In this document: piece by piece, positions 4,949 through 64,000 of the stretch | How the letters are laid out: each line of letters starts with the position of its first letter | Position numbering within the stretch: position 1 is the first letter of the stretch | DNA from: an uncultured Lachnospiraceae bacterium | GTDB lineage: Bacteria > Bacillota > Clostridia > Lachnospirales > Lachnospiraceae | Length of the DNA: 64,000 nucleotides | Assembly: GCA_946557105.1 (NCBI GenBank) | Contig: CAMNSZ010000002.1 | Coordinates: forward strand, 62,001 to 126,000 | Reading direction: 5' to 3' | The notes under the pieces: model-generated | What the model saw: the letters and a program-made list of their open reading frames with translations, nothing else | What the model was told of the DNA's origin: nothing | Database searches by the model: none | Made by a program: the position numbers and the translations under genes

Positions 4949-6055
4949 TCAAAGCCTTAGTGATTTTTGTATTTCCGTAAAAAATTCAGGACAAGGCGCC
5001 GTAATAATCCGGTCGCGCAAGGGCGCAAGGACGCCGCTTTCCTTCGGAAATTCCACGCGGTAAGCGTGCAAAAGCTGATTTCGCAGCCCGAAGCGCTCCA
5101 TGAAAAGCTGATTTTGCTTTCTGCTTCCATATTTATTATCGCCAATCAGCGGATGTCCGATATGGGCAAGGTGGGCGCGAATCTGGTGCGTTTTTCCGGT
5201 AATCAGCTCTATCTCCAGAAGGGTAAAGCTGATGCCGCCTTCCTGACGGCAGCTCTTTATGGGGCGGCATTTCGTGTGAATAAAATCACCGTTTTTTTCC
5301 TGCCCCCAAATCACCTCCGGCATAATACGCACCTTATTTGAGGCGTTATCCTTTATCAGGTATCCTTTCAAGTCCGCGCTTTCGGAAAGGACACCCGCGC
5401 ATATGGTACGGTAAAACTTCCGCAGGGTCCGTTCCTTTATGGCATGGCTAAGCGCCTGCGTGCCGGCAAGCGATTTTCCGCATAATACAATTCCGCTGGT
5501 ATTGCGGTCCAAACGATTGCAGACGGATGGATGAAAGCTTCTTAGCTCCTCTTCTGTTATGGCTTTAGAGGTTAGCAGATAGCCCACCAGCCATTCGTTC
5601 AGGCTAAGGTCGCCGGGCGCCGCCTTCTGCGTAAGCACGCCTACAGGCTTGTCCAACGCCACAATATTTTCATCCTCATACAAAACATGAATATCAGAAA
5701 GCTTCTTATAGGCAAGACTGTATTCTGCCAAACCGTCCGCCCGCAGAGGGCTGCTTGATGCTGCCGCCGGCTTTCGGGCTGGCTGTTCGGAAGCTGCATG
5801 CTTGGAGGCCTCATATTGCTGTTCCGCAAATTCCTGCCCTCTAAACTTAAAAAAGGTTTCCTCGGAAAAAAAGAATTTCACCTCGTCGCCAAGGGAAAGA
5901 ATCTCCTTCCCCTCTGCCTTTTTGCCATTTAAGGTAATATTCTTCTTCCGAAGCATTTTATAGAGAAAGCTTGTGCCTGCCTCCTGCAGGTATTTATGCA
6001 AAAATTTGTCAAGACGCTGCCCCGCCTGATTTTTGCCGATAATTACTGACTGCAT
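4949..6055 (-). CDS. RluA-family pseudouridine synthase with S4 domain
   Basis: Converts specific uridines in rRNA to pseudouridine (RluC/RluD class). 368 residues: S4 RNA-binding domain at about 12-60 (AGQRLDKFLHKYL, NGKKAEG), a low-complexity linker rich in Ala/Ser at about 78-105, then the catalytic domain with RLDRNTSGIVLCGKS, whose Asp is the nucleophile, and GKTHQIRAHLAHIGHPLIGDNKYG. The ATG has GGAGG 8 nt upstream. Standing alone on the strand it may modify 23S rRNA; the exact target site cannot be read from the sequence. Confidence 0.9.
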   Translation of the reverse strand: MQSVIIGKNQAGQRLDKFLHKYLQEAGTSFLYKMLRKKNITLNGKKAEGKEILSLGDEVKFFFSEETFFKFRGQEFAEQQYEASKHAASEQPARKPAAASSSPLRADGLAEYSLAYKKLSDIHVLYEDENIVALDKPVGVLTQKAAPGDLSLNEWLVGYLLTSKAITEEELRSFHPSVCNRLDRNTSGIVLCGKSLAGTQALSHAIKERTLRKFYRTICAGVLSESADLKGYLIKDNASNKVRIMPEVIWGQEKNGDFIHTKCRPIKSCRQEGGISFTLLEIELITGKTHQIRAHLAHIGHPLIGDNKYGSRKQNQLFMERFGLRNQLLHAYRVEFPKESGVLAPLRDRIITAPCPEFFTEIQKSLRL

Positions 6056-24972: not shown

Positions 24973-27030
24973 TCAGATAGACCTAAAGTCAACACTGTTT
25001 CGCACAGTGGCCGAAAAGTGCCTTTTAAGAGCGGCATTTTTATCCGAGGCCAGCTCGCTATCCTCCTTAAGCAGGCTCTCCACGGCATCGGACGCCTGCT
25101 TAAGTATACCTGCATCCGTATATATGTCGCCCATTTCAAAGGCAAAATCACCGCTTTGCCGGACGCCGAAAAGCTCTCCCGGTCCGCGCAGCTTTAAGTC
25201 TTCCGAAGCTATAAAAAAGCCGTCGTTTGATTTATTTAAAATTCCCAGCCGTTCCATAGTTTGCTTTTTCTCATTGGCGCTCACAAAAATACAATAGCTT
25301 TGATGCTCGCCTCTTCCGACCCGACCCCTGAGCTGATGGAGCTGGGCAAGACCAAAACGCTCCGCATTTTCCACCATCATGACCGTGGCGTTCGGAACAT
25401 TTATCCCCACCTCTATTACGGTAGTGGAGACCAGTACTTGAATATCCTTTGCCGCGAATGCATCCATAATTTTATTTTTGTCGGCAGGACGCATTTTCCC
25501 ATGAAGATATGCCACCTGAATATAGGGAGGCAATGCCGCCCTCAGCTTGTCGGCATACTCCACAACATTTTCCACATCTTCAAGCTCTCCCTCCTCTACC
25601 ATGGGGCAGATTACATATGCCTGTCTGCCCTTCGCAACCTCCTTTGCTATAAACTCATATGCTTTAGGACGGTAAGCTGTATTCACCACACAATTTTTAA
25701 TAGGAAGTCTGTTTGCAGGAAGCTCGTCAATTACGGAAATATGCAAATCACCATACAAAATAATGGCAAGAGTGCGCGGGATGGGTGTTGCACTCATCAC
25801 AAGCACATGGGGCTTGTGTCCTTTTTCGGCTAAATGCTCCCTCTGGCGCACGCCAAATCGATGTTGCTCGTCCGTCACCACCAGAGCCAGAGAATGATAT
25901 ACAACCTTTTCCTGAATCAGCGCATGTGTTCCGATAACGAGGTTTGCCTCGCCGGAGGCGATTTTCCTATAAGCCTCCTTCTTTTCTCTGGCGGTCATTG
26001 AACCCACCAGAAGCACGGGGTGGAAAGCAAGTTTGTATGTCCTCGTATAGGAGGATATCCCATCGAAATGCTGCATGGCAAGAACCTCTGTGGGAGCCAT
26101 AAGAGCTCCCTGATATCCGTTTGCGGCGCACATAAGCAGGGCAAGCACCGCCACAATCGTTTTTCCGGAGCCCACATCGCCCTGAATAAGCCTGTTCATA
26201 CAGAAAGCGCCGCTACAATCGTCACGAATCTCCTGCCATACCTTTTTCTGCCCTTTTGTGAGGACAAAGGGAAGCCCCTCCAAAAAACGCACCGTATCAG
26301 CCGTCTCATACATGGGATAGCCGTTTTCAAGCCGGGCGCTCAGCTCTTTATTTTTGCGCAGCAGCAACAAAAATGAGAAAAATTCGTCAAAAACAATACG
26401 TCGTCTTGCCCTTTGCATGGAGACCGTATCCTCCGGAAAATGGATGGAACATAGAGCATCCTTTATGGAAGTTAAATCATATTCCGACAGTATACGCTCC
26501 GGATAAAACTCCTCCTCAAATTCATAAAGACCAAGCGCCTGTTTCACTGCCTTTTGTACGGCGTGATTGGTCAGCCCCTTCGTCAGAGAATATCTTGGCT
26601 GCAGGACGCCTGTCTGCTTACGATAATCTTCAATCGAATAAATTTGGGGCTGCTCCATAATTCTGGCAGCGCTGCGAGTCTGTACCAGTCCTCGGAAAAC
26701 ATAAAATCCACCCGGTCTCAATAGCTTTTTTAAAAACGGCATATTAAAAAACGTAAGCTGCATCGCTGCGGAAGAATCTCTCACCAAAACATTTATTATC
26801 ACAAGGCTGCGAACCTTTTTCTGACCGGGAACGGCGGTAACCGATGCGTAAATGGCACAGACCTCGCCGGGAACGGTCTCGCTGATAGGAACAGGCTCCT
26901 CAAAGCTTTCGTATGCCCTCGGATAATGATTTACCAAATCGCCCACCGTGCGCACGTTAATCTTTTCAAAAAGCTTCTGAGATTTTTCGCCAACGCCCTT
27001 CAAATCTGTTATAGGGGCATTATCGTTCAT
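24973..27030 (-). CDS. recG: ATP-dependent DNA helicase RecG
   Basis: About 685 residues. RecG reverses stalled replication forks and branch-migrates junctions. N-terminal wedge/OB region (TDLKGVGEKSQKLFEKI, VNHYPRAYE), then helicase domain 1 with QGDVGSGKTIVAV (Walker A) and VTDEQHRFGVRQRE (DEQH box), MSATPIPRTLA, and domain 2 with VSTTVIEVGINVPNA and QLHQLRGRVGRG. Start at 27030 (MNDNAPITDLKG); the longer frame to 27060 lacks support. Same strand and order as yloV-asp23. Confidence 0.97.
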   Translation of the reverse strand: MNDNAPITDLKGVGEKSQKLFEKINVRTVGDLVNHYPRAYESFEEPVPISETVPGEVCAIYASVTAVPGQKKVRSLVIINVLVRDSSAAMQLTFFNMPFLKKLLRPGGFYVFRGLVQTRSAARIMEQPQIYSIEDYRKQTGVLQPRYSLTKGLTNHAVQKAVKQALGLYEFEEEFYPERILSEYDLTSIKDALCSIHFPEDTVSMQRARRRIVFDEFFSFLLLLRKNKELSARLENGYPMYETADTVRFLEGLPFVLTKGQKKVWQEIRDDCSGAFCMNRLIQGDVGSGKTIVAVLALLMCAANGYQGALMAPTEVLAMQHFDGISSYTRTYKLAFHPVLLVGSMTAREKKEAYRKIASGEANLVIGTHALIQEKVVYHSLALVVTDEQHRFGVRQREHLAEKGHKPHVLVMSATPIPRTLAIILYGDLHISVIDELPANRLPIKNCVVNTAYRPKAYEFIAKEVAKGRQAYVICPMVEEGELEDVENVVEYADKLRAALPPYIQVAYLHGKMRPADKNKIMDAFAAKDIQVLVSTTVIEVGINVPNATVMMVENAERFGLAQLHQLRGRVGRGEHQSYCIFVSANEKKQTMERLGILNKSNDGFFIASEDLKLRGPGELFGVRQSGDFAFEMGDIYTDAGILKQASDAVESLLKEDSELASDKNAALKRHFSATVRNSVDFRSI

Positions 27031-57783: not shown

Positions 57784-58089
57784 TTATATCCCTGAAAGTG
57801 AACTTAAAATCGCCGCTCCCGATACTACTATGATAATTGCAGGAATAAGCCCAAGTATTCCACACACTAGCCCTGCAACCGCCATACCTGTACCGCCCAT
57901 TTTTTTGGCCAGCGATATTCCGCCCAAAATTACGGCAAGCAATGCAAGTACAATAGGTATATAGGGTACACAGCATGCCAGTACGAGAGCGCAAATACCT
58001 AACACCATTGAAGCGACGGCGAGACCTACGCTGGGATTACTTCCCTGAGGCTGCATAAGAGGAACTTGTCCGTTCTGATTATAAGCCAT
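57784..58089 (-). CDS. DUF4190 small membrane protein
   Basis: 101 residues: short polar N-terminus (MAYNQNGQVPLMQPQ), then two DUF4190 hydrophobic repeats (AVASMVLGICALVLACC, GISLAKKMGGTGMAVAGLV) of four likely helices. The family is of unknown function; several copies occur near each other in gut Firmicutes, and another lies at 58967-59317. A terminator of the neighbouring gene lies upstream, so it has its own transcript. Confidence 0.8.
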   Translation of the reverse strand: MAYNQNGQVPLMQPQGSNPSVGLAVASMVLGICALVLACCVPYIPIVLALLAVILGGISLAKKMGGTGMAVAGLVCGILGLIPAIIIVVSGAAILSSLSGI

Positions 58090-58144
58090 TAGTTTATTCT
58101 CCTTATATTTATATATAGAAATTTGTTTAATTTAATAAGTTCAG

Positions 58145-58183
58145 TAAAAAAGAAGGTACCTCAGCCAACAGGATGAAGTACCT
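58145..58183 (-). terminator. Terminator after the DUF4870 gene
   Basis: On the minus strand AGGTACTTCA and TGAGGTACCT (10 bp, one G-U) with a 10-nt loop, followed by TCTTTTTTA. Confidence 0.85.
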
Positions 58184-58199
58184 CCCCTAAATATTAATA

Positions 58200-58502
58200 T
58201 TACTTTAAAATTTTAATGGAACCGATTAAAGGAAGCTCCTTATCCTGTTCCTGAGCTGCAAAAATAATACCTAAAATGGAATATACAAAAATTGCAAGAC
58301 TAAGAAGTGATGAAACAATCGTTCCGATAATCGGAATAAATACCAGTATAACCGATAAAACGCTTATCGCAATACCGCCGATTGCGACAACTAACGCCTG
58401 ATTCAAGTGAAACTTTGCGCCTTCCTTATCACCGGCACAATATGCGATAACCCAGCCGATAATAGTTAAATAAGCGATAATTCCTGTAACTTTCTTGTCC
58501 AT
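58200..58502 (-). CDS. DUF4870 (Tic20-like) membrane protein
   Basis: 100 residues. MDKKVTGIIAYLTIIGWVIAY, DKEGAKFHLNQALVVAIGG and a third and fourth helix match the small DUF4870/Tic20-like fold. The ATG at 58502 has GGAG 9 nt upstream; the longer frame to 58832 belongs to the DUF2752 gene in another frame. Function unknown; in the same small-membrane-protein group. Confidence 0.8.
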   Translation of the reverse strand: MDKKVTGIIAYLTIIGWVIAYCAGDKEGAKFHLNQALVVAIGGIAISVLSVILVFIPIIGTIVSSLLSLAIFVYSILGIIFAAQEQDKELPLIGSIKILK

Positions 58503-58543
58503 AGTAAATATTCTCCTTTTTATGCCCCATCGGGCTGGTTTTC

Positions 58544-58963
58544 CTAAAGCATAACGATACCAAAACAAAATTTCAGTACGTTCTTTAATATGAAGTTTAT
58601 AACTACCAATGCCAACGCCCCATATAGGTAACCAGCACGGAATTTCATTCCTTTTAAGCCAAATAAATGTAAGCCTGCCAAAGTGTGGGAAACCATAAAG
58701 CCAAAGTATAAAACAGCTCCGTATACGATTAGCGGATGGTACCACAAGGATTCTACAAACCGTCCCTGAAGAAAAGCAATCAGTGAACGGGTTCCACCGC
58801 AGCCCGGACAATAGATTCCCAAATATTTCCAAAAAAAACAGGCCGGCTGGGGTACTTTTACCTCCGGTAAAAGTACCTTCAGCAAAAATATCCCAACGCC
58901 TGCAAGCACCAGAAATATGAGACCTATGTAATAAAGCCCATCCTCCAGCGTCCTCTGTCTCAT
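58544..58963 (-). CDS. DUF2752 membrane protein
   Basis: 139 residues, three to four helices. The Cys-rich motif CPGCGGTRSLIAFLQG is the DUF2752 signature, possibly metal-binding. Gene order with DUF4190 (4 nt upstream) shows co-transcription. Function unknown. Confidence 0.88.
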   Translation of the reverse strand: MRQRTLEDGLYYIGLIFLVLAGVGIFLLKVLLPEVKVPQPACFFWKYLGIYCPGCGGTRSLIAFLQGRFVESLWYHPLIVYGAVLYFGFMVSHTLAGLHLFGLKGMKFRAGYLYGALALVVINFILKNVLKFCFGIVML

Positions 58964-58966
58964 GAT

Positions 58967-59317
58967 TTAGTAGCTATAGCCCATCTCTTCCAGCATAGCG
59001 GCTGCACTTGCACCCAAAACAAGACCTACAATGGTGATAATAAGTGCTAAAACAATACCGATTATGGAGCAAACCATAGCGGCTGTACCAATACCGGACT
59101 TAGCCTTCTTATTGGAGAGAATTGCCAACACCAAACCGATAGCACCGGGAATTAAGCCCCAGTATGCGCAGCAGCTCATAACGATAGATAAAATACCTAA
59201 AATTAAGCCTACGATTGCCAACGGGTCAGTAGAATTCTGACCTTCACTGGTTACTACGGGAGGTACCTGATAATTTCCCTGATTGTTTTGTTCATTCTGT
59301 AAATTCTGTCCGTCCAT
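58967..59317 (-). CDS. DUF4190 small membrane protein, second copy
   Basis: 116 residues with a Gln/Asn-rich N-terminus (QNLQNEQNNQGNYQVPP) and helices PLAIVGLILGILSIVMSCC, GAIGLVLAILSNKKAKSGIG. Similar to the copy at 57784-58089 and likely a duplicate. Same unit as DUF2752. Confidence 0.82.
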   Translation of the reverse strand: MDGQNLQNEQNNQGNYQVPPVVTSEGQNSTDPLAIVGLILGILSIVMSCCAYWGLIPGAIGLVLAILSNKKAKSGIGTAAMVCSIIGIVLALIITIVGLVLGASAAAMLEEMGYSY

Positions 59318-59359
59318 TTGTTTTCTCCTTTTTCTGAAAATAATTTTGCAAATTGATTC

Positions 59360-59791
59360 CTAATCCTTGAGTAGATTGCCGCTTGCGTCTGTGTCAATCT
59401 TGCCAACCAGAATCATAATGCCTTCTACAAGACCCCATATACCGATACCCATTACCACAAATACACCGACGCCAACACAGCATAAAATGTAGCCGACAAT
59501 GGTACTGACAAGCTGTATGATTGCTTTTGTCGTATATCCGAGATAAAAGTTATGTACACCAAAGGAGCCTAAAAAGATACCTAATAAACCGGCAGCCATT
59601 TTTGACTTCGCACCTTGAGATGCAACCTTAGTAGCAACTCCGCAAGTCAGGCATACCTGCGCATTAGGCTGAATCGGCTTGCCGCAATTATGACAATAAC
59701 TAGCGCCCAGACCCTTGCCCACGCCGCACTTTACGCACATCACCGCTTCATCAGTTACATAGGGTTCTCCACAGTTTTTACAAAAGTACAT
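59360..59791 (-). CDS. TM2-domain protein with two zinc ribbons
   Basis: 143 residues. Two CxxC pairs form zinc ribbons (YFCKNCGEPY, MCVKCGVGKG, YCHNCGKPIQ, CLTCGVATK), then a TM2 helix pair with MAAGLLGIFLGSFGVHNFYLGY. TM2 proteins are thought to link membranes with nucleic-acid or protein surveillance; role unknown. Start at 59791, 10 nt after GGAGG. First gene of the small-membrane-protein unit. Confidence 0.88.
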   Translation of the reverse strand: MYFCKNCGEPYVTDEAVMCVKCGVGKGLGASYCHNCGKPIQPNAQVCLTCGVATKVASQGAKSKMAAGLLGIFLGSFGVHNFYLGYTTKAIIQLVSTIVGYILCCVGVGVFVVMGIGIWGLVEGIMILVGKIDTDASGNLLKD

Positions 59792-59882
59792 GTAAAGCAT
59801 TCCTCCTCTCATAAGTATATGTGTCTATATAACAAACAATGTTATTATATAATATATTAAGAATTATTTCTACTAAAATTTT

Positions 59883-59948: not shown

Positions 59949-61181
59949 TTATCCTTTTACTACCCCCACTGTCTTAAGCTTTCTTACGGGCGTAACGATA
60001 TCCGTCTGCTGCGCCATTACCTCGTCAATGTCCTTATAGGCGAAACGGCACTCCTCCGCCACGTCATTCTTCTTTCTCTTACCGAGGGTAACGCCCTGCT
60101 CCTTTAAATCCACCATGACCTGCTCCGTCGTAAACGCCTTCATGGCGCCGCTTCTGGAATAAGCCCTGCCCGCCCCGTGGGAGGAGGTACAAAAGGACTC
60201 CTCATTGCCCCTTCCTTCCACAACATAGCTGTAAGAGCCCATAGCGCCCGGTATGACGGCGCGCTCCCCAAGCCTTACCCTTGTGGCGCCTTTTCGGTGC
60301 ACCCATACATTGGCGTCATAGTGATTCTCCAAAGAAGCATAATTGTGATGGCAGTTTATTTTGTCGGTAAAGGAAACCGTCAGTCCTGCATATCTTTTCA
60401 TATGCTCTTTAACCACTTCACAGGTTTTCTCAAGCATACGCTCCCTGTTTTCAAAGGCATAGTCAAGGGCAAGCGTCATCCAGTTTATATAGCTCTTCCC
60501 CTCGTCGGTTTGTACTGGAAGAAACGCCAGTCTGTACTCGTCCGGTACCCTGCTGTACCATCTTTGGTTCAATTCTCTTGCCTTATTGTGAAAATAATCG
60601 CAGATTTCCTTTCCCAAATGACGGCTGCCCGAGTGTATCATAATGCAAAGATAGCCCTCCTCGTCTACCTGAAGCTCGATAAAGTGGTTTCCTCCCCCAA
60701 GAGTACCTACCTGAAAATAGCCCTCGTCAATCAAATGCGTCAACCGGTGATTTGCCTCATACTTCTCCATATTGTCAAGCGCCCTGTCCAGTACGGCGGA
60801 TTCCTGCTTCTGCTTATGGCTTTCAAACCCCACAGGCACGCTGCGCATGATGCCGCCTATCATGGACTGCATAACGGAAGCGCTTCCCACCTTTATATCC
60901 TTGATTTCCTCATATTTGACATCGGTTGCCACAAATACCATGCCGCAGCCGATATCCACACCTACCGCATTGGGAATAATCACATCTTTTGTGGCTATCA
61001 CGCCTCCGATAGGCATTCCCTTCCCCGTATGGGTGTCCGGCATAAGGCACACCCACTTATGGAGAAAGGGAAGGTTTGACAGATGATATGCCTGCTCCAG
61101 ACAGGACTCTTCCATCCTGTCTATTCCGGAAAGCCATGTTTTTATAGGATATGCCGTGTTTTCGTTAAATATTACGAACAT
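59949..61181 (-). CDS. rtcB: RNA ligase RtcB
   Basis: 410 residues. RtcB joins RNA ends carrying 2',3'-cyclic phosphate (or 3'-P) to 5'-OH, using GTP and Mn. Motifs: LMPDTHTGKGMPIGGVIATK, VGVDIGCGM (metal Cys), GTLGGGNHFIEL, IHSGSRHLGKEICDYF, NCHHNYA, and the guanylylation region SSHGAGRAYSR. Length matches the short bacterial form. Starts 7 nt after GGAGG and overlaps the stop of the DUF2828 gene by 10 nt, so the two are translated together. Confidence 0.95.
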   Translation of the reverse strand: MFVIFNENTAYPIKTWLSGIDRMEESCLEQAYHLSNLPFLHKWVCLMPDTHTGKGMPIGGVIATKDVIIPNAVGVDIGCGMVFVATDVKYEEIKDIKVGSASVMQSMIGGIMRSVPVGFESHKQKQESAVLDRALDNMEKYEANHRLTHLIDEGYFQVGTLGGGNHFIELQVDEEGYLCIMIHSGSRHLGKEICDYFHNKARELNQRWYSRVPDEYRLAFLPVQTDEGKSYINWMTLALDYAFENRERMLEKTCEVVKEHMKRYAGLTVSFTDKINCHHNYASLENHYDANVWVHRKGATRVRLGERAVIPGAMGSYSYVVEGRGNEESFCTSSHGAGRAYSRSGAMKAFTTEQVMVDLKEQGVTLGKRKKNDVAEECRFAYKDIDEVMAQQTDIVTPVRKLKTVGVVKG

Positions 61182-62686
61182 AAATAATCCTCCACCTTTC
61201 TATATCTCTCACTGTTAAGAATTTTCTTTAAGCATGCATAAGGGTTCAACTCGTTTGAGAGGACCATGTTGCACACATTGACGGAAAATCCGCTGACCAG
61301 ACCCACTCCAAGCTCGTTTTCACGGACGGGTATCACATTCGTCCTGCTGTTCACGTTCCAAAACACCAGCTTAGGCGTTCTGTAGCCGTATGACGCAAAC
61401 CGTTCCTTAATGGAATGAAACAATGTTTTGGTACCTACGCCCCGCGCGGCGCAATCAAATTCCATATCGGAAATCACAAGAATGGTCCGGGGCAGCTCCT
61501 CCTGCCGTAAACGGTTTCTCACCGCCGTTTCCAGCACCAGCATAAAGGTCGCCTCTATATTGGTATTGGTACAATCACAATGGGAAAACGCCAGCTCAAG
61601 CTTCTCCTTAAGCGTCCTGCATACGGATAAATCCACATACTCGGGCCTGCTGGAAAAGGTAATAAACTTATTTTTGTATACCCCCTTAAGCCTCTCGGCA
61701 AAATAGATACCCAGCGCATTGGATGCATGGAGCGCCGTAGTGCTTCCATCCCCCACCGGACACATCATGCTTCCGGAACCGTCTACCACGCAAAGCACAT
61801 TTTCCGCGCCCCCCACCTTGTCGGGCAGGTTGCTCCAAAGCGCCTCCAACGCCGCATCCAACGCAGGAAGGCTCGCCCTCCAGCCCGCAATCTTTGCGTA
61901 TCTGGTTACAATATCATGGGGCATCAACACATCCGCATGCATCACCGCACGATTACTCTTCACAGCCTCAAGGTAACATTTTCTGCGCGTCTCGTCATGG
62001 CTTAAGAATGCGTTCCTGTAAAGGATATTTGCCTTGGAAGCCACCCTTGCATAATCAATTTCATCCCAACGGTTTGCGCTCATGAAGCTTTCGGTCACAT
62101 TCAGATACGCTCTCAGGGAAGCAAGCAGCTTTCTGTATTCCCTTGCGGTAATCCCCATAAAACGCTGCAGTTTTGCCGCTGTTTCCTTCGACGTCTTAGA
62201 GGATGTATTATTGCTTGGCATCCACTTTGCGCAAAGGGAAACGCCTTCGCCCGCCTCCATATTCTTCACATCCTCCAGAAGCTGCGTCTTTAAGACTGTC
62301 AGAGCCTTCTCCTCAACAGGCGTCTCAAGCAGGGAGAGCAAATCGTCGAAACGGCCGTACTGCGCCATGATTTCAGCCAATCCGCTTACCATATCGGGAA
62401 AGCCTTCTGCCAGATGTCTGATAATAATTCTGAAGCTTCTTCTTTCGCCCAGTCCGCCTCTTATGTCACGCAGGAAGAACAGCCACTTTATCGCAAGAAT
62501 TCTGTCCTCGTAGAAGGCATGGATAAAACGGTTGATAATTCTTCCTTCTTCTTCGTTCCTAAGGGAGGCAGCCGCAAAGTTCAAGTCCACAAGTGCCTTT
62601 CCCGTTGTTCCATAACCTATGGCGCCGTTTTCGGTCGTCTTCCTTTCATCTTCTAAAATAGTATGTAACTTTTCCATAAAGCTCAT
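61172..62686 (-). CDS. DUF2828/Ro60-like protein with vWA domain
   Basis: About 504 residues. N-terminal TENGAIGYGTTGKALVDLNF opens DUF2828, a helical ring-like part follows (IKWLFFLRDIRGGLGERRSFR resembles TROVE repeats), then a vWA domain with MIDAS DGSGSM at about 302-306 and LVFWNVNSRTN at the end. Ro60 proteins with TROVE plus vWA bind misfolded RNA and Y RNAs. Start 62686 (ATG); the frame opens with TTG at 62698. Adjacent to rtcB and three tRNA-like RNAs. Confidence 0.82.
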   Translation of the reverse strand: MSFMEKLHTILEDERKTTENGAIGYGTTGKALVDLNFAAASLRNEEEGRIINRFIHAFYEDRILAIKWLFFLRDIRGGLGERRSFRIIIRHLAEGFPDMVSGLAEIMAQYGRFDDLLSLLETPVEEKALTVLKTQLLEDVKNMEAGEGVSLCAKWMPSNNTSSKTSKETAAKLQRFMGITAREYRKLLASLRAYLNVTESFMSANRWDEIDYARVASKANILYRNAFLSHDETRRKCYLEAVKSNRAVMHADVLMPHDIVTRYAKIAGWRASLPALDAALEALWSNLPDKVGGAENVLCVVDGSGSMMCPVGDGSTTALHASNALGIYFAERLKGVYKNKFITFSSRPEYVDLSVCRTLKEKLELAFSHCDCTNTNIEATFMLVLETAVRNRLRQEELPRTILVISDMEFDCAARGVGTKTLFHSIKERFASYGYRTPKLVFWNVNSRTNVIPVRENELGVGLVSGFSVNVCNMVLSNELNPYACLKKILNSERYRKVEDYLCS

Positions 62687-62733
62687 AACTCTCACCAATC
62701 CTTTCCATAAGCTTCCTTCCTAATAAATCTCAT

Positions 62734-62845
62734 TGTGGGGATGGGATTTGAACCCATAACCCCTATGCCCCTAGCATTTTTGTAGCTGTTAAAGCCTTTT
62801 TCAAGACTTATTTTAATAGTGCTCTACCCGTTAAGCTACCCCACA
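62734..62845 (-). ncRNA. tRNA-like RNA 1, interrupted anticodon arm
   Basis: Minus strand: acceptor TGTGGGG pairs with CCCCACA (7/7), TA, D-arm GCTT-AACGGGTA-GAGC, T-arm ATGGG-TTCAAAT-CCCAT. D and T arms are 63 nt apart, 40 more than a normal tRNA. Removing 62776-62815 leaves stem CTATG/CATAG around loop CTAGGGG with U33 and anticodon AGG. The 40-nt insert holds a hairpin AAGTCTT-GAAA-AAGGCTT (62792-62809). No CCA is encoded. TAATAAATC/GATTTATTA can extend the acceptor stem (62721-62855). Confidence 0.8.
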
Positions 62846-62868
62846 TGATTTATTAAAAAAAGCAGCTT

Positions 62869-62973
62869 TACCGGGGCAGGATTCGAACCTGCTAATCACC
62901 ATTTGATATGTAATCGCAGTAAAAGCCTTTTACAAGACTTATTTTTTTGATTCACCTAAGAACCGCCGCGATA
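62869..62973 (-). ncRNA. tRNA-like RNA 2, interrupted anticodon arm
   Basis: Minus strand: acceptor TATCGCG pairs with CCCGGTA (6/7), D-arm GGTT-CTTAGGTG-AATC, T-arm GCAGG-TTCGAAT-CCTGC. About 33 extra nt lie between D and T arms and include hairpin AAGTCTT-GTAA-AAGGCTT (62923-62940). A weaker anticodon arm ATTAC-ATATCAA-ATGGT can be drawn. The acceptor stem extends outward by GCAGCTT/AAGCTGC to give a nearly perfect 12-bp stem (62862-62980). No CCA is encoded. Confidence 0.72.
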
Positions 62974-63010
62974 AAGCTGCCCTGTGACTTGAGAAAACCC
63001 TTGAAGCTGC

Positions 63011-63126
63011 CGTCCGGGTGGGAATCGAACCCACGACAACGCACTTGACAGGTGTTTTTGGATTGCCGTTAAGGTCTTTGTCAAGACCTATTTTCTTCCG
63101 CGCTCTACCCTCTGAGCTACCTGACA
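63011..63126 (-). ncRNA. tRNA-like RNA 3, interrupted anticodon arm
   Basis: Minus strand: acceptor TGTCAGG with CCGGACG (6/7), TA, D-arm GCTC-AGAGGGTA-GAGC, T-arm GTGGG-TTCGATT-CCCAC. Removing 44 nt (63055-63098) leaves perfect anticodon stem CGCAC/GTGCG around loop CTGTCAA (U33, anticodon GTC as in tRNA-Asp), then a 5-nt variable loop. The insert holds hairpin AGGTCTT-GACA-AAGACCT (63072-63089). Longer pairing AAGCCGC/GCAGCTT surrounds it (63004-63133). No CCA is encoded. First of the three on the minus-strand transcript. Confidence 0.8.
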
Positions 63127-63249
63127 GCGGCTTTTCTTCGGTTTTCCCTTGTCTGAATATAGAATACAACTTATGGAAAAATTTATCATTTCAAAAAAGT
63201 TGCGAAGTAGATTTTTGTAAAAAAACTATCTGATAAAGAACGTTTATGT

Positions 63250-63480: not shown

Positions 63481-63518
63481 CGCCAAGCTCATAAATTATA
63501 AGCAGGATGGTGGATAAT

Positions 63519-64000
63519 ATGTCGGAATTTAAAGAATTAATTAAATCCTTTTCCAAAAGCCGGGAGTATGTCCGCGATTTCTTTGTATACGGCTTTAAGA
63601 CCCGCGACGAATTCGGGGGCTGGAGCGGCCGTACCTACGATAATGAGCGTCGCAGGCTGGAGAGCTGGCTGTCCGGCTATGTGAGGCAGGATTATACCGA
63701 AAAAGGAAAAAATATTTATCTTTCCATGGACAGCAATCTCCTTGACACCAATCCTCTGTATCGGGTATGGAAGGCAAAAAGCTTTACCGACAACGACATT
63801 ATGCTGCATTTCTATATACTGGACTATCTGCTGCAATCTAAGAAGGAGACGGCTGACGGGATAACCGACGGCATTCTGGATATCTATGATATGATGTTTG
63901 ACTCCCAGTTGGTTCGACGAAAGTGTAACGAATACGCCAAGGATGGCATTCTTACAAAGGAAAAAAGCGGCCGGGAGATTTTGTACAGTCTCAATCCTTC
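63519..64000 (+). CDS. Right-edge gene, possible WYL-type regulator (partial)
   Basis: The first 160 codons are in the window; the gene runs off the right end. MSEFKELIKSFSKSREYVRDF, then RRLESWLSGYVRQDYTEKGKN and DNDIMLHFYILDYLL suggest an N-terminal winged-helix region; this resembles WYL-domain regulators from memory, but the WYL part itself is not visible. The ATG at 63519 has GGTGG 5 nt upstream; an ATG at 63507 is also in frame. Divergent from the tRNA-like/DUF2828/rtcB unit, a usual place for its regulator. Confidence 0.5.
   Translation, partial: MSEFKELIKSFSKSREYVRDFFVYGFKTRDEFGGWSGRTYDNERRRLESWLSGYVRQDYTEKGKNIYLSMDSNLLDTNPLYRVWKAKSFTDNDIMLHFYILDYLLQSKKETADGITDGILDIYDMMFDSQLVRRKCNEYAKDGILTKEKSGREILYSLNP

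What the first reader, a model, noticed from the sequence alone, without database searches (positions are those of the whole stretch)
59949..63133. RtcB RNA ligase, Ro60-like DUF2828 protein and three interrupted tRNA-like RNAs in one unit
Seen: rtcB overlaps the DUF2828 gene by 10 nt; 48 nt upstream of the latter lie three tandem tRNA-like RNAs on the same strand, separated by short spacers. Known: RtcB seals RNA breaks, Ro60 proteins bind misfolded RNA and tRNA-like Y RNAs, and rsr-yrl-rtc operons exist in Proteobacteria. Inference: this is a separate Firmicute version in which the tRNA-like RNAs are substrates, sensors or partners of the two proteins. I do not know a published description of this arrangement.
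Basis: partly seen in the sequence, partly recalled or inferred. Interest (0 to 1): 0.93.

Follow-up and report, generated by a model that had tools for sequence, protein, structure and literature searches.

The report
Ro60-type RNPs displaying tRNA anticodons
Beside genes for an RNA-repair ligase and for a protein predicted to fold like the RNA-binding protein Ro60, this bacterium carries three tRNA-shaped RNAs that share a hairpin, in two of them splitting the anticodon stem, and about a fifth of the related RNAs beside the same gene in other bacteria and in phages hold an exact copy of a tRNA anticodon loop, so they likely act as decoys for enzymes that cut tRNAs.

The parts
59949..61181 (-). 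rtcB, RNA ligase; DIGCGM, GGGNHF and HGAGR stretches align with solved RtcB (that these are the active-site motifs is recalled)
   Evidence: PF01139 382 bits; alignment to solved RtcB 1uc2 and others
61172..62686 (-). DUF2828+DUF7788 protein, 504 aa, predicted Ro60 fold (helical-repeat part + vWA with invariant DxSxS/T/D)
   Evidence: Pfam; invariant residues; model pLDDT 85.8; all six Foldseek matches under 1e-3 and the ten best VIA rows are Ro60/TROVE entries
62734..62845 (-). RNA R1: full tRNA body (7-bp acceptor, D, anticodon, T arms); anticodon loop CUAGGGG (AGG)
   Evidence: Rfam tRNA 49.4 bits
62778..62817 (-). 40-nt insert of R1 between tRNA positions 28 and 29: hairpin AAGUCUU-GAAA-AAGGCUU + AACAGCUA
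62862..62981 (-). RNA R2: long acceptor stem, core hairpin, T arm; no D arm and no anticodon arm
   Evidence: 22 other core copies are listed without a D arm
62914..62940 (-). core hairpin + ACUGCGA of R2
63006..63128 (-). RNA R3: tRNA body with extended acceptor holding one mismatch; anticodon loop CUGUCAA (GUC, Asp-like)
   Evidence: Rfam tRNA 33.9 bits
63055..63098 (-). 44-nt insert of R3 between positions 28 and 29: hairpin AGGUCUU-GACA-AAGACCU + AACGGCAA
63040..63054 (-). 3' part of the R3 anticodon arm: CAC-CUGUCAA-GUGCG (GUGCG pairs with CAC plus the CG before the insert)
63185..63205 (-). conserved 21-mer TCGCAACTTTTTTGAAATGAT between the RNAs and the divergent regulator gene; only copy in this genome with up to 3 mismatches; likely operator
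   Evidence: (a looser pattern is found in 26 of 76 loci)
63507..63998 (+). start of a divergent gene (runs off the window), homologue of a WYL-domain regulator
   Evidence: WYL (PF13280) detected in the distant homologue of L050 and in the regulator beside L045, not in the window piece nor in the close homologues of L024 and L025

Best explanation
The unit likely encodes a Ro60-like ribonucleoprotein: three tRNA-shaped RNAs carry a conserved hairpin-ACAGCAA element that likely anchors them to the DUF2828 protein, while their tRNA part would present an anticodon arm as a decoy or bait for nucleases that cut tRNA anticodons, with RtcB likely resealing the cut ends. Shown: the gene order; the element's structure, covariation and association with DUF2828 genes in bacteria and phages; the position of the insert at 28/29 with an intact anticodon stem; two circularly permuted layouts of the same element; anticodon loops identical to real tRNA loops far above chance; varying anticodons in otherwise near-constant RNAs. 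Predicted: the Ro60 fold. Inferred: binding of the RNAs by the protein, control by the divergent WYL-type proteins through the conserved 21-mer, decoy/bait function, and the repair role of RtcB. How it would work: stress or infection induces the unit; the RNAs accumulate as stable RNPs; an anticodon nuclease is occupied by, or cuts, the displayed loop instead of tRNA; the cut leaves 2',3'-cyclic phosphate and 5'-OH ends that RtcB can join, so the bait is recycled. The anticodon on display would change as the local set of nucleases changes.
For: Ro60 fold. Core next to DUF2828: 24 of 25 close named loci; 12 of 13 family genomes with an interrupted-tRNA hit over 70 bits (the window's own genome among them) have DUF2828 in the same locus, against 40 of 397 genomes overall (p 2.5e-12); ACAGCAA upstream sense/antisense 128/17 in 76 bacterial loci (p 3e-22), 196/8 upstream and 70/10 downstream in 72 viral loci. 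Structure: 29 RNAs, covariation score 0.299 against 0.149 shuffled, 0 of 500 reach it. Permuted form: 63 of 83 non-hairpin bacterial motifs pair downstream (control 13.7%); 177 of 313 viral/phage motifs (control 9.9%). Anticodon display: 7-nt loops on 5-bp stems in 130 of 267 permuted RNAs (shuffled 58; other loop sizes 54-89 against 53-62), exact tRNA loops in 50 of 267 (shuffled mean 1.06, maximum 3 in 50 rounds); with only the tRNAs of two whole genomes as reference 35 of 267 (mean 0.22, maximum 1), and 29 of 254 after clustering; 20 of 29 interrupted RNAs. Entropy of the arm peaks at positions 34-36 (1.4-1.5 bits; U33 0.36). RNAs 95% identical outside the anticodon differ in it: UCU/UUU, UUU/GAU. 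rtcB is in 24 of 40 DUF2828-bearing and 91 of 357 other family genomes (p 2.5e-5).
Against: No call shows RNA-protein binding, transcription of the bacterial RNAs, or cleavage. The window's own loops (CUGUCAA, CUAGGGG) are near-matches, not exact copies, of tRNA loops (Asp CUGUCAC, Pro UUAGGGA), and R2 displays no anticodon arm. Most permuted RNAs have no recognised anticodon loop (exact in 50 of 267; 71 of 267 with U33 and a purine at 37); 9 of the 50 rest on reference loops seen once, which could themselves be RNAs of this class. rtcB is not linked in most loci and in none of 80 viral loci within the flanks held. Anticodon nucleases in these genomes were not searched for. In 8 of 76 bacterial loci (the window among them, which has only variants) and 12 of 72 viral loci no exact sense ACAGCAA was found in the searched flanks.
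Confidence: 0.55

Rival explanations
1. Ordinary Y-RNA role: the RNAs are tRNA-mimicking tethers or gates of a Ro60-like protein (RNA quality control or decay with PNPase-like enzymes); the anticodon loops are only leftovers of their tRNA ancestry.
For: Ro60 fold; a phage RNA of this class, L166 1399-1512, scores 42.7 bits against YrlA with T arm, closed acceptor and D arm in YrlA order. YrlA is described as tRNA-like in passages of PMC7790460 and Y RNAs as tRNA mimics in passages of PMC12282133.
Against: Some permuted RNAs with no other tRNA feature keep a 5-bp/7-nt anticodon arm identical to real loops, and near-identical RNAs swap anticodons; leftovers would not be expected to stay exact.
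Confidence: 0.22
2. Sensor: cleavage of the displayed anticodon loop produces fragments that the divergent WYL-type proteins read, switching the unit on, as RtcR reads tRNA halves.
For: Divergent WYL-type pair and conserved 21-mer next to the RNAs; RtcR parallel (PMC7790460 passages).
Against: No ligand evidence; 50 of 76 bacterial loci lack the 21-mer pattern; phage loci were not scanned for it.
Confidence: 0.1
3. The RNAs are pre-tRNAs whose insert of about 38-46 nt is an intron, spliced with RtcB as ligase to give working tRNAs.
For: Removing the insert of R1 leaves a complete cloverleaf with 7-bp acceptor and 5-bp anticodon stem; RtcB seals tRNA exons elsewhere (recalled).
Against: The inside of the insert, not its ends, is conserved. 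The same element occurs in RNAs with no tRNA body to restore and in RNAs without an anticodon arm. Many acceptors carry a bulge or mismatch (67% of acceptor cells pair). A complete genome, G405, has normal Gln-UUG, Lys-UUU, Asp-GUC and Pro-AGG tRNAs besides its one interrupted RNA (the loop UUUUGAA of that RNA I read by eye). rtcB is often not linked.
Confidence: 0.06
4. Degenerating tRNA genes of a mobile or phage-derived cluster, without function.
For: Several phage relatives lie among tRNA clusters.
Against: Covariation and strand-specific conservation in bacteria and phages.
Confidence: 0.02

Closest known systems
rsr-yrlBA-rtcBA RNA-repair operon (Salmonella; PMC7790460, passages read)
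   Same: Ro60-type protein, tRNA-like RNAs and RtcB in one unit
   Different: DUF2828 instead of a TROVE-profile Rsr; RNAs upstream of the protein gene; no RtcA among the 7 neighbouring ORFs scanned; WYL-type divergent genes where RtcR would be; RNAs R1 and R3 show an open acceptor and a full anticodon arm
YrlA Y RNA (Rfam RF02553)
   Same: tRNA-like body joined to a stem taken to be the Ro-binding part; phage L166 RNA has the same arm order (42.7 bits)
   Different: Window RNAs are the circular permutation (ends at the acceptor, hairpin closed); different motif (ACAGCAA); below the gathering score (24.6 and 42.7 against 69); no anticodon arm in the YrlA model
Phage Ro-like proteins: mycobacteriophage annotations, jumbo phages (PMC7824862 and PMC7765460, passages read), Listeria phage CKA15 (PMC12282133, passages read)
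   Same: Ro/TROVE-type proteins in phages are noted, with a tRNA-like or Y RNA partner proposed; CKA15_055 and the mycobacteriophage proteins are DUF2828 matches here
   Different: The passages give no motif, structure or anticodon content; the most transcribed CKA15 region (26,236-26,727) coincides with a ROOL RNA match, not with the ACAGCAA RNAs
Intron-containing tRNAs joined by RtcB (archaea, animals; recalled)
   Same: insert in the anticodon region, RtcB nearby
   Different: insert at 28/29 with a conserved interior, found also without a tRNA body
Phage tRNAs that defeat tRNA-cutting immunity (PARIS/AriB, PMC12409363, start of abstract seen in a listing)
   Same: virus-borne RNA against tRNA cleavage
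   Different: there the phage supplies tRNAs; here non-coding RNAs display anticodon loops on a Ro-like RNP

Membership tests
Ro60/Rsr (TROVE + vWA) | Overall Ro60 fold: helical-repeat ring plus vWA domain | tested here: met
Ro60/Rsr (TROVE + vWA) | Match to the TROVE sequence profile | tested here: not met
   Pfam scan gives DUF2828 and DUF7788 only; profile search of PDB sequences reaches TROVE proteins only at E 0.14. So: works like a Ro60, remote relative by fold; not filed as a TROVE family member
Ro60/Rsr (TROVE + vWA) | MIDAS residues in the vWA domain | tested here: met
   D302, S304, S306, T375, D407 invariant in 39 sequences (that these make up the MIDAS is recalled)
Ro60/Rsr (TROVE + vWA) | Binds Y RNA or misfolded RNA | not testable with these tools
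   needs pull-down
YrlA (RF02553) | Reaches the family's gathering score of 69 bits | tested here: not met
   window 24.6 bits, L166 42.7 bits
tRNA | Cloverleaf recognised by the tRNA model | tested here: met
   R1 49.4 and R3 33.9 bits with long insertions; R2 not matched
tRNA | Uninterrupted anticodon arm usable in decoding | tested here: not met
   40-44-nt insert between positions 28 and 29
Intron-bearing tRNA | Conserved splice-site structure at the insert ends | tested here: inconclusive
   ends are A-rich and variable by eye; no bulge-helix-bulge search was run
rsr-yrl-rtcBA operon | rtcB in the unit | tested here: met
rsr-yrl-rtcBA operon | rtcA and RtcR beside it | tested here: not met
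   not among the 7 ORFs scanned around the unit; the rest of the genome was not searched for them

The most novel reading that the evidence does not exclude
A widespread, so far unrecognised class of non-coding RNAs in bacteria and phages ('ACAGCAA RNAs') that display single tRNA anticodon arms on a Ro60-like protein as molecular decoys against anticodon nucleases: an RNA-based shield for the tRNA pool whose specificity is re-aimed by swapping three nucleotides. The class exists in two circularly permuted layouts, tRNA-like and YrlA/Y-RNA-like, which would make it the missing link between tRNAs and Y RNAs.
Probability: 0.45. Interest if true: 0.95.

Novelty: new variant of a known kind. Interest (0 to 1): 0.88.

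Why it matters
What Ro60 proteins and tRNA-like Y RNAs do in bacteria and phages is a long-open question. Here the RNAs of one large Ro-like family carry readable specificity: the anticodon they show. That makes a direct prediction, RNA by RNA, of which tRNA-cutting enzyme each should meet. If true, it adds a decoy layer to the tRNA-centred conflict between phages and bacteria, gives a function to DUF2828, found in 682 of 50,697 phage records including known phages such as A511 and KVP40, and suggests how Y RNAs can arise from tRNAs by circular permutation.
Full report
What is there. On the minus strand of 59949-63205 the order is: a conserved 21-mer (63185-63205), three tRNA-like RNAs (R3 63006-63128, R2 62862-62981, R1 62734-62845), a DUF2828+DUF7788 gene (61172-62686) and rtcB (59949-61181), the two genes overlapping by 10 nt. 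A divergent gene starts at 63507 and runs off the window; in relatives its full copies form a conserved pair of about 410-440 and 324-347 aa, with a WYL domain detected in the distant homologue of L050 and in the regulator beside the L045 unit, but not in the close homologues of L024 and L025. The ORF list gives DUF2828 a TTG start at 62698; relatives start at the ATG that lies at 62686.

The RNAs. Each carries a core: a hairpin of about 7 bp with a GNNA tetraloop followed by two nucleotides and ACAGCAA or a near variant. In R1 and R3 the core sits in an insert of 40 and 44 nt exactly between tRNA positions 28 and 29: the 5' strand of the anticodon stem is split CU|AUG (R1) or CG|CAC (R3) and pairs perfectly with CAUAG or GUGCG, closing 7-nt loops CUAGGGG and CUGUCAA. 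R2 has a long acceptor and T arm but no D or anticodon arm. The core is in 26 of 52 stretches searched (51 loci and the window), 57 copies, and in 24 of the 25 named loci with DUF2828 at 59% identity or more. On 29 interrupted RNAs, 90.6% of cells pair and covariation is 0.299 against 0.149 in shuffles, 0 of 500 reaching it; the acceptor is the weak helix, 67% paired.

The anticodon varies. In the same 29 RNAs positions 34-36 have the highest entropy of the arm (1.41-1.53 bits) while U33 has 0.36. RNAs 95% identical outside the anticodon differ in it (UCU/UUU in L020/L043; UUU/GAU in L023/L024); of 40 pairs at 85% or more, 24 differ. Many pairs are related, so these counts are not independent.

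Association with DUF2828 rather than rtcB. In 397 family genomes, 13 have an interrupted hit over 70 bits; 12 of the 13, the window's own genome included, have DUF2828 in the same locus, against 40 of 397 overall (p 2.5e-12). The exception, L067, has the RNA and a 21-mer-like motif (by eye) but no DUF2828 in the fetched stretch. rtcB is in 115 of 397 genomes: 24 of 40 with DUF2828, 91 of 357 without (p 2.5e-5). At least 11 of the 40 have the rtcB match within 0.5 kb (the hit list was cut, so this is a lower bound). In 38 named loci rtcB is in the flanks of 14 (several contigs end early).

The general form. Upstream of 76 bacterial DUF2828 genes of 36-100% identity (80 loci less 3 with too short upstream stretches and 1 duplicate; near relatives remain), ACAGCAA occurs 128 times on the sense and 17 times on the other strand; 68 loci have at least one. 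The window itself has only variants (ACAGCUA, ACUGCGA, ACGGCAA). In distant loci the element is permuted: 5'-AAGNYNC-NN-ACAGCAA ... GNRNCUU-G-3' in its commonest form, a terminal stem enclosing the rest, instead of a closed hairpin inside a tRNA. Of 140 motifs (two variants included), 57 are hairpins; of the other 83, 63 have a downstream partner scoring 7 or more against 13.7% with a shuffled strand. In one phage locus (L166) the enclosed part is T arm, closed acceptor, D arm, the order of YrlA (42.7 bits). So both layouts, YrlA-like and tRNA-like, occur with one protein family.

Anticodon arms without tRNAs. In several permuted RNAs the enclosed part is mainly one hairpin with 5 bp and a 7-nt loop, for example AUAGA-CUUUUAA-UCUAU (L155, L157), GUAGA-CUUCCAA-UCUAU (L127), AUAGA-CUGUAAA-UCUAU (L054), UUGAU-CUGUCAC-AUCAA (L129). 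Over 267 distinct RNAs (173 IMG/VR, 66 bacterial, 28 GenBank phage) 7-nt loops on 5-bp stems, T loops left out, occur in 130 against 57.8 in dinucleotide shuffles, while other loop sizes give 54-89 against 53-62. The anticodons read Lys UUU (13), Ser GCU (5), Pro UGG (5), Ser UGA (4), Asn GUU (4), and 1-3 each of Ile, Gln, Gly, Met, Cys, Phe, Asp, Glu, His, Leu, Tyr and Pro AGG, plus one doubtful AAU. Reference tRNAs containing ACAGCAA were left out, but a reference loop seen once could still come from an RNA of this class; with loops seen at least twice 41 remain (mean 0.5), and with only the 73 tRNAs of the whole genomes G000 and G405 as reference 35 of 267 remain (mean 0.22, maximum 1), 29 of 254 after clustering.

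Phages. DUF2828 is in 682 of 50,697 phage records, annotated among others as Ro-like RNA binding protein. In 72 distinct of 80 IMG/VR loci (the best 80 of 489) ACAGCAA occurs upstream 196 to 8 and downstream 70 to 10, sense to antisense; 60 of 72 have at least one sense copy. Of 13 named phages read, A511, EC6, Rumpelstiltskin, JoeDirt, Los1, PJN02 and Bop have convincing elements, KVP40, Ah1 and Alsa_2 do not, KP13-26, phiM12 and Fnu1 have one to three. In Listeria phage CKA15 three elements lie directly before the gene CKA15_055, and an annotated tRNA splicing ligase lies 1.3 kb after it. Passages of PMC12282133 report that protein in purified particles, three abundant non-coding transcripts upstream, and the proposal that they are Y RNAs of an Rsr. 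The one transcript whose place is given (26,236-26,727) is instead covered by a ROOL RNA match just below its gathering score; whether the other two are the ACAGCAA RNAs I could not tell.

Reading. A Ro60-like RNP whose RNAs present anticodon arms is the shortest account of: linkage to a Ro60-fold gene, a conserved protein-site-like element with free sequence in the stems, tRNA bodies that cannot decode as they stand, and real anticodon loops that change while all else stays. Decoy or bait for anticodon nucleases follows from knowledge of those enzymes (recalled), from the phage setting beside tRNA clusters, and from RtcB where present. It is inference. The splicing rival is weakened by the permuted forms and by G405, a complete genome with 47 distinct ARAGORN tRNAs, among them a normal Gln-UUG tRNA, the anticodon that I read by eye in its interrupted RNA.

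Noticed in passing
L248:5461-6012 (Listeria phage CKA15 record 26195-26746): A ROOL RNA match (90.1 bits, gathering 99.1, E 8e-17) covers the region 26,236-26,727 that PMC12282133 gives as one of the most transcribed, unexplained regions of the phage.
   Followed up: partly
L049:7080-7599: A ROOL RNA (192 bits) lies between DUF2828 and rtcB in an Erysipelotrichaceae contig.
   Followed up: no
L067:1501-1621: An interrupted tRNA-like RNA with the AATCAT[GTTT]GTGATT core and, by eye, a 21-mer-like motif upstream, without DUF2828 in the 3.1-kb locus.
   Followed up: no
L043:1377-1496 and 5726-5973: Extra interrupted RNAs far upstream and also downstream of DUF2828; the locus looks as if genes had been inserted into an RNA array.
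   Followed up: no
L053:4001-4530 and L056:4001-5133: DUF2828 matches are broken or internally missing in these two assemblies while the RNAs and rtcB are present; could be assembly error.
   Followed up: no
L054:5822-6060 and L050:5462-5618: Ordinary-looking tRNA matches directly after DUF2828, in L054 between it and rtcB, in contigs labelled uncultured bacterium and Gastranaerophilales.
   Followed up: no
window 57784-59812: Downstream of rtcB a run of small genes with TM2 and zinc-ribbon, DUF4190-like and DUF2752 matches.
   Followed up: no
L019:6292-7658: A transposase-like gene pair (by eye) directly after rtcB.
   Followed up: no
PMC13148394 (passages): Overexpression of the Ro-like RNA-binding protein gp53 of mycobacteriophage LeBron is toxic to its host, as are its RNA ligase and polynucleotide kinase.
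   Followed up: no
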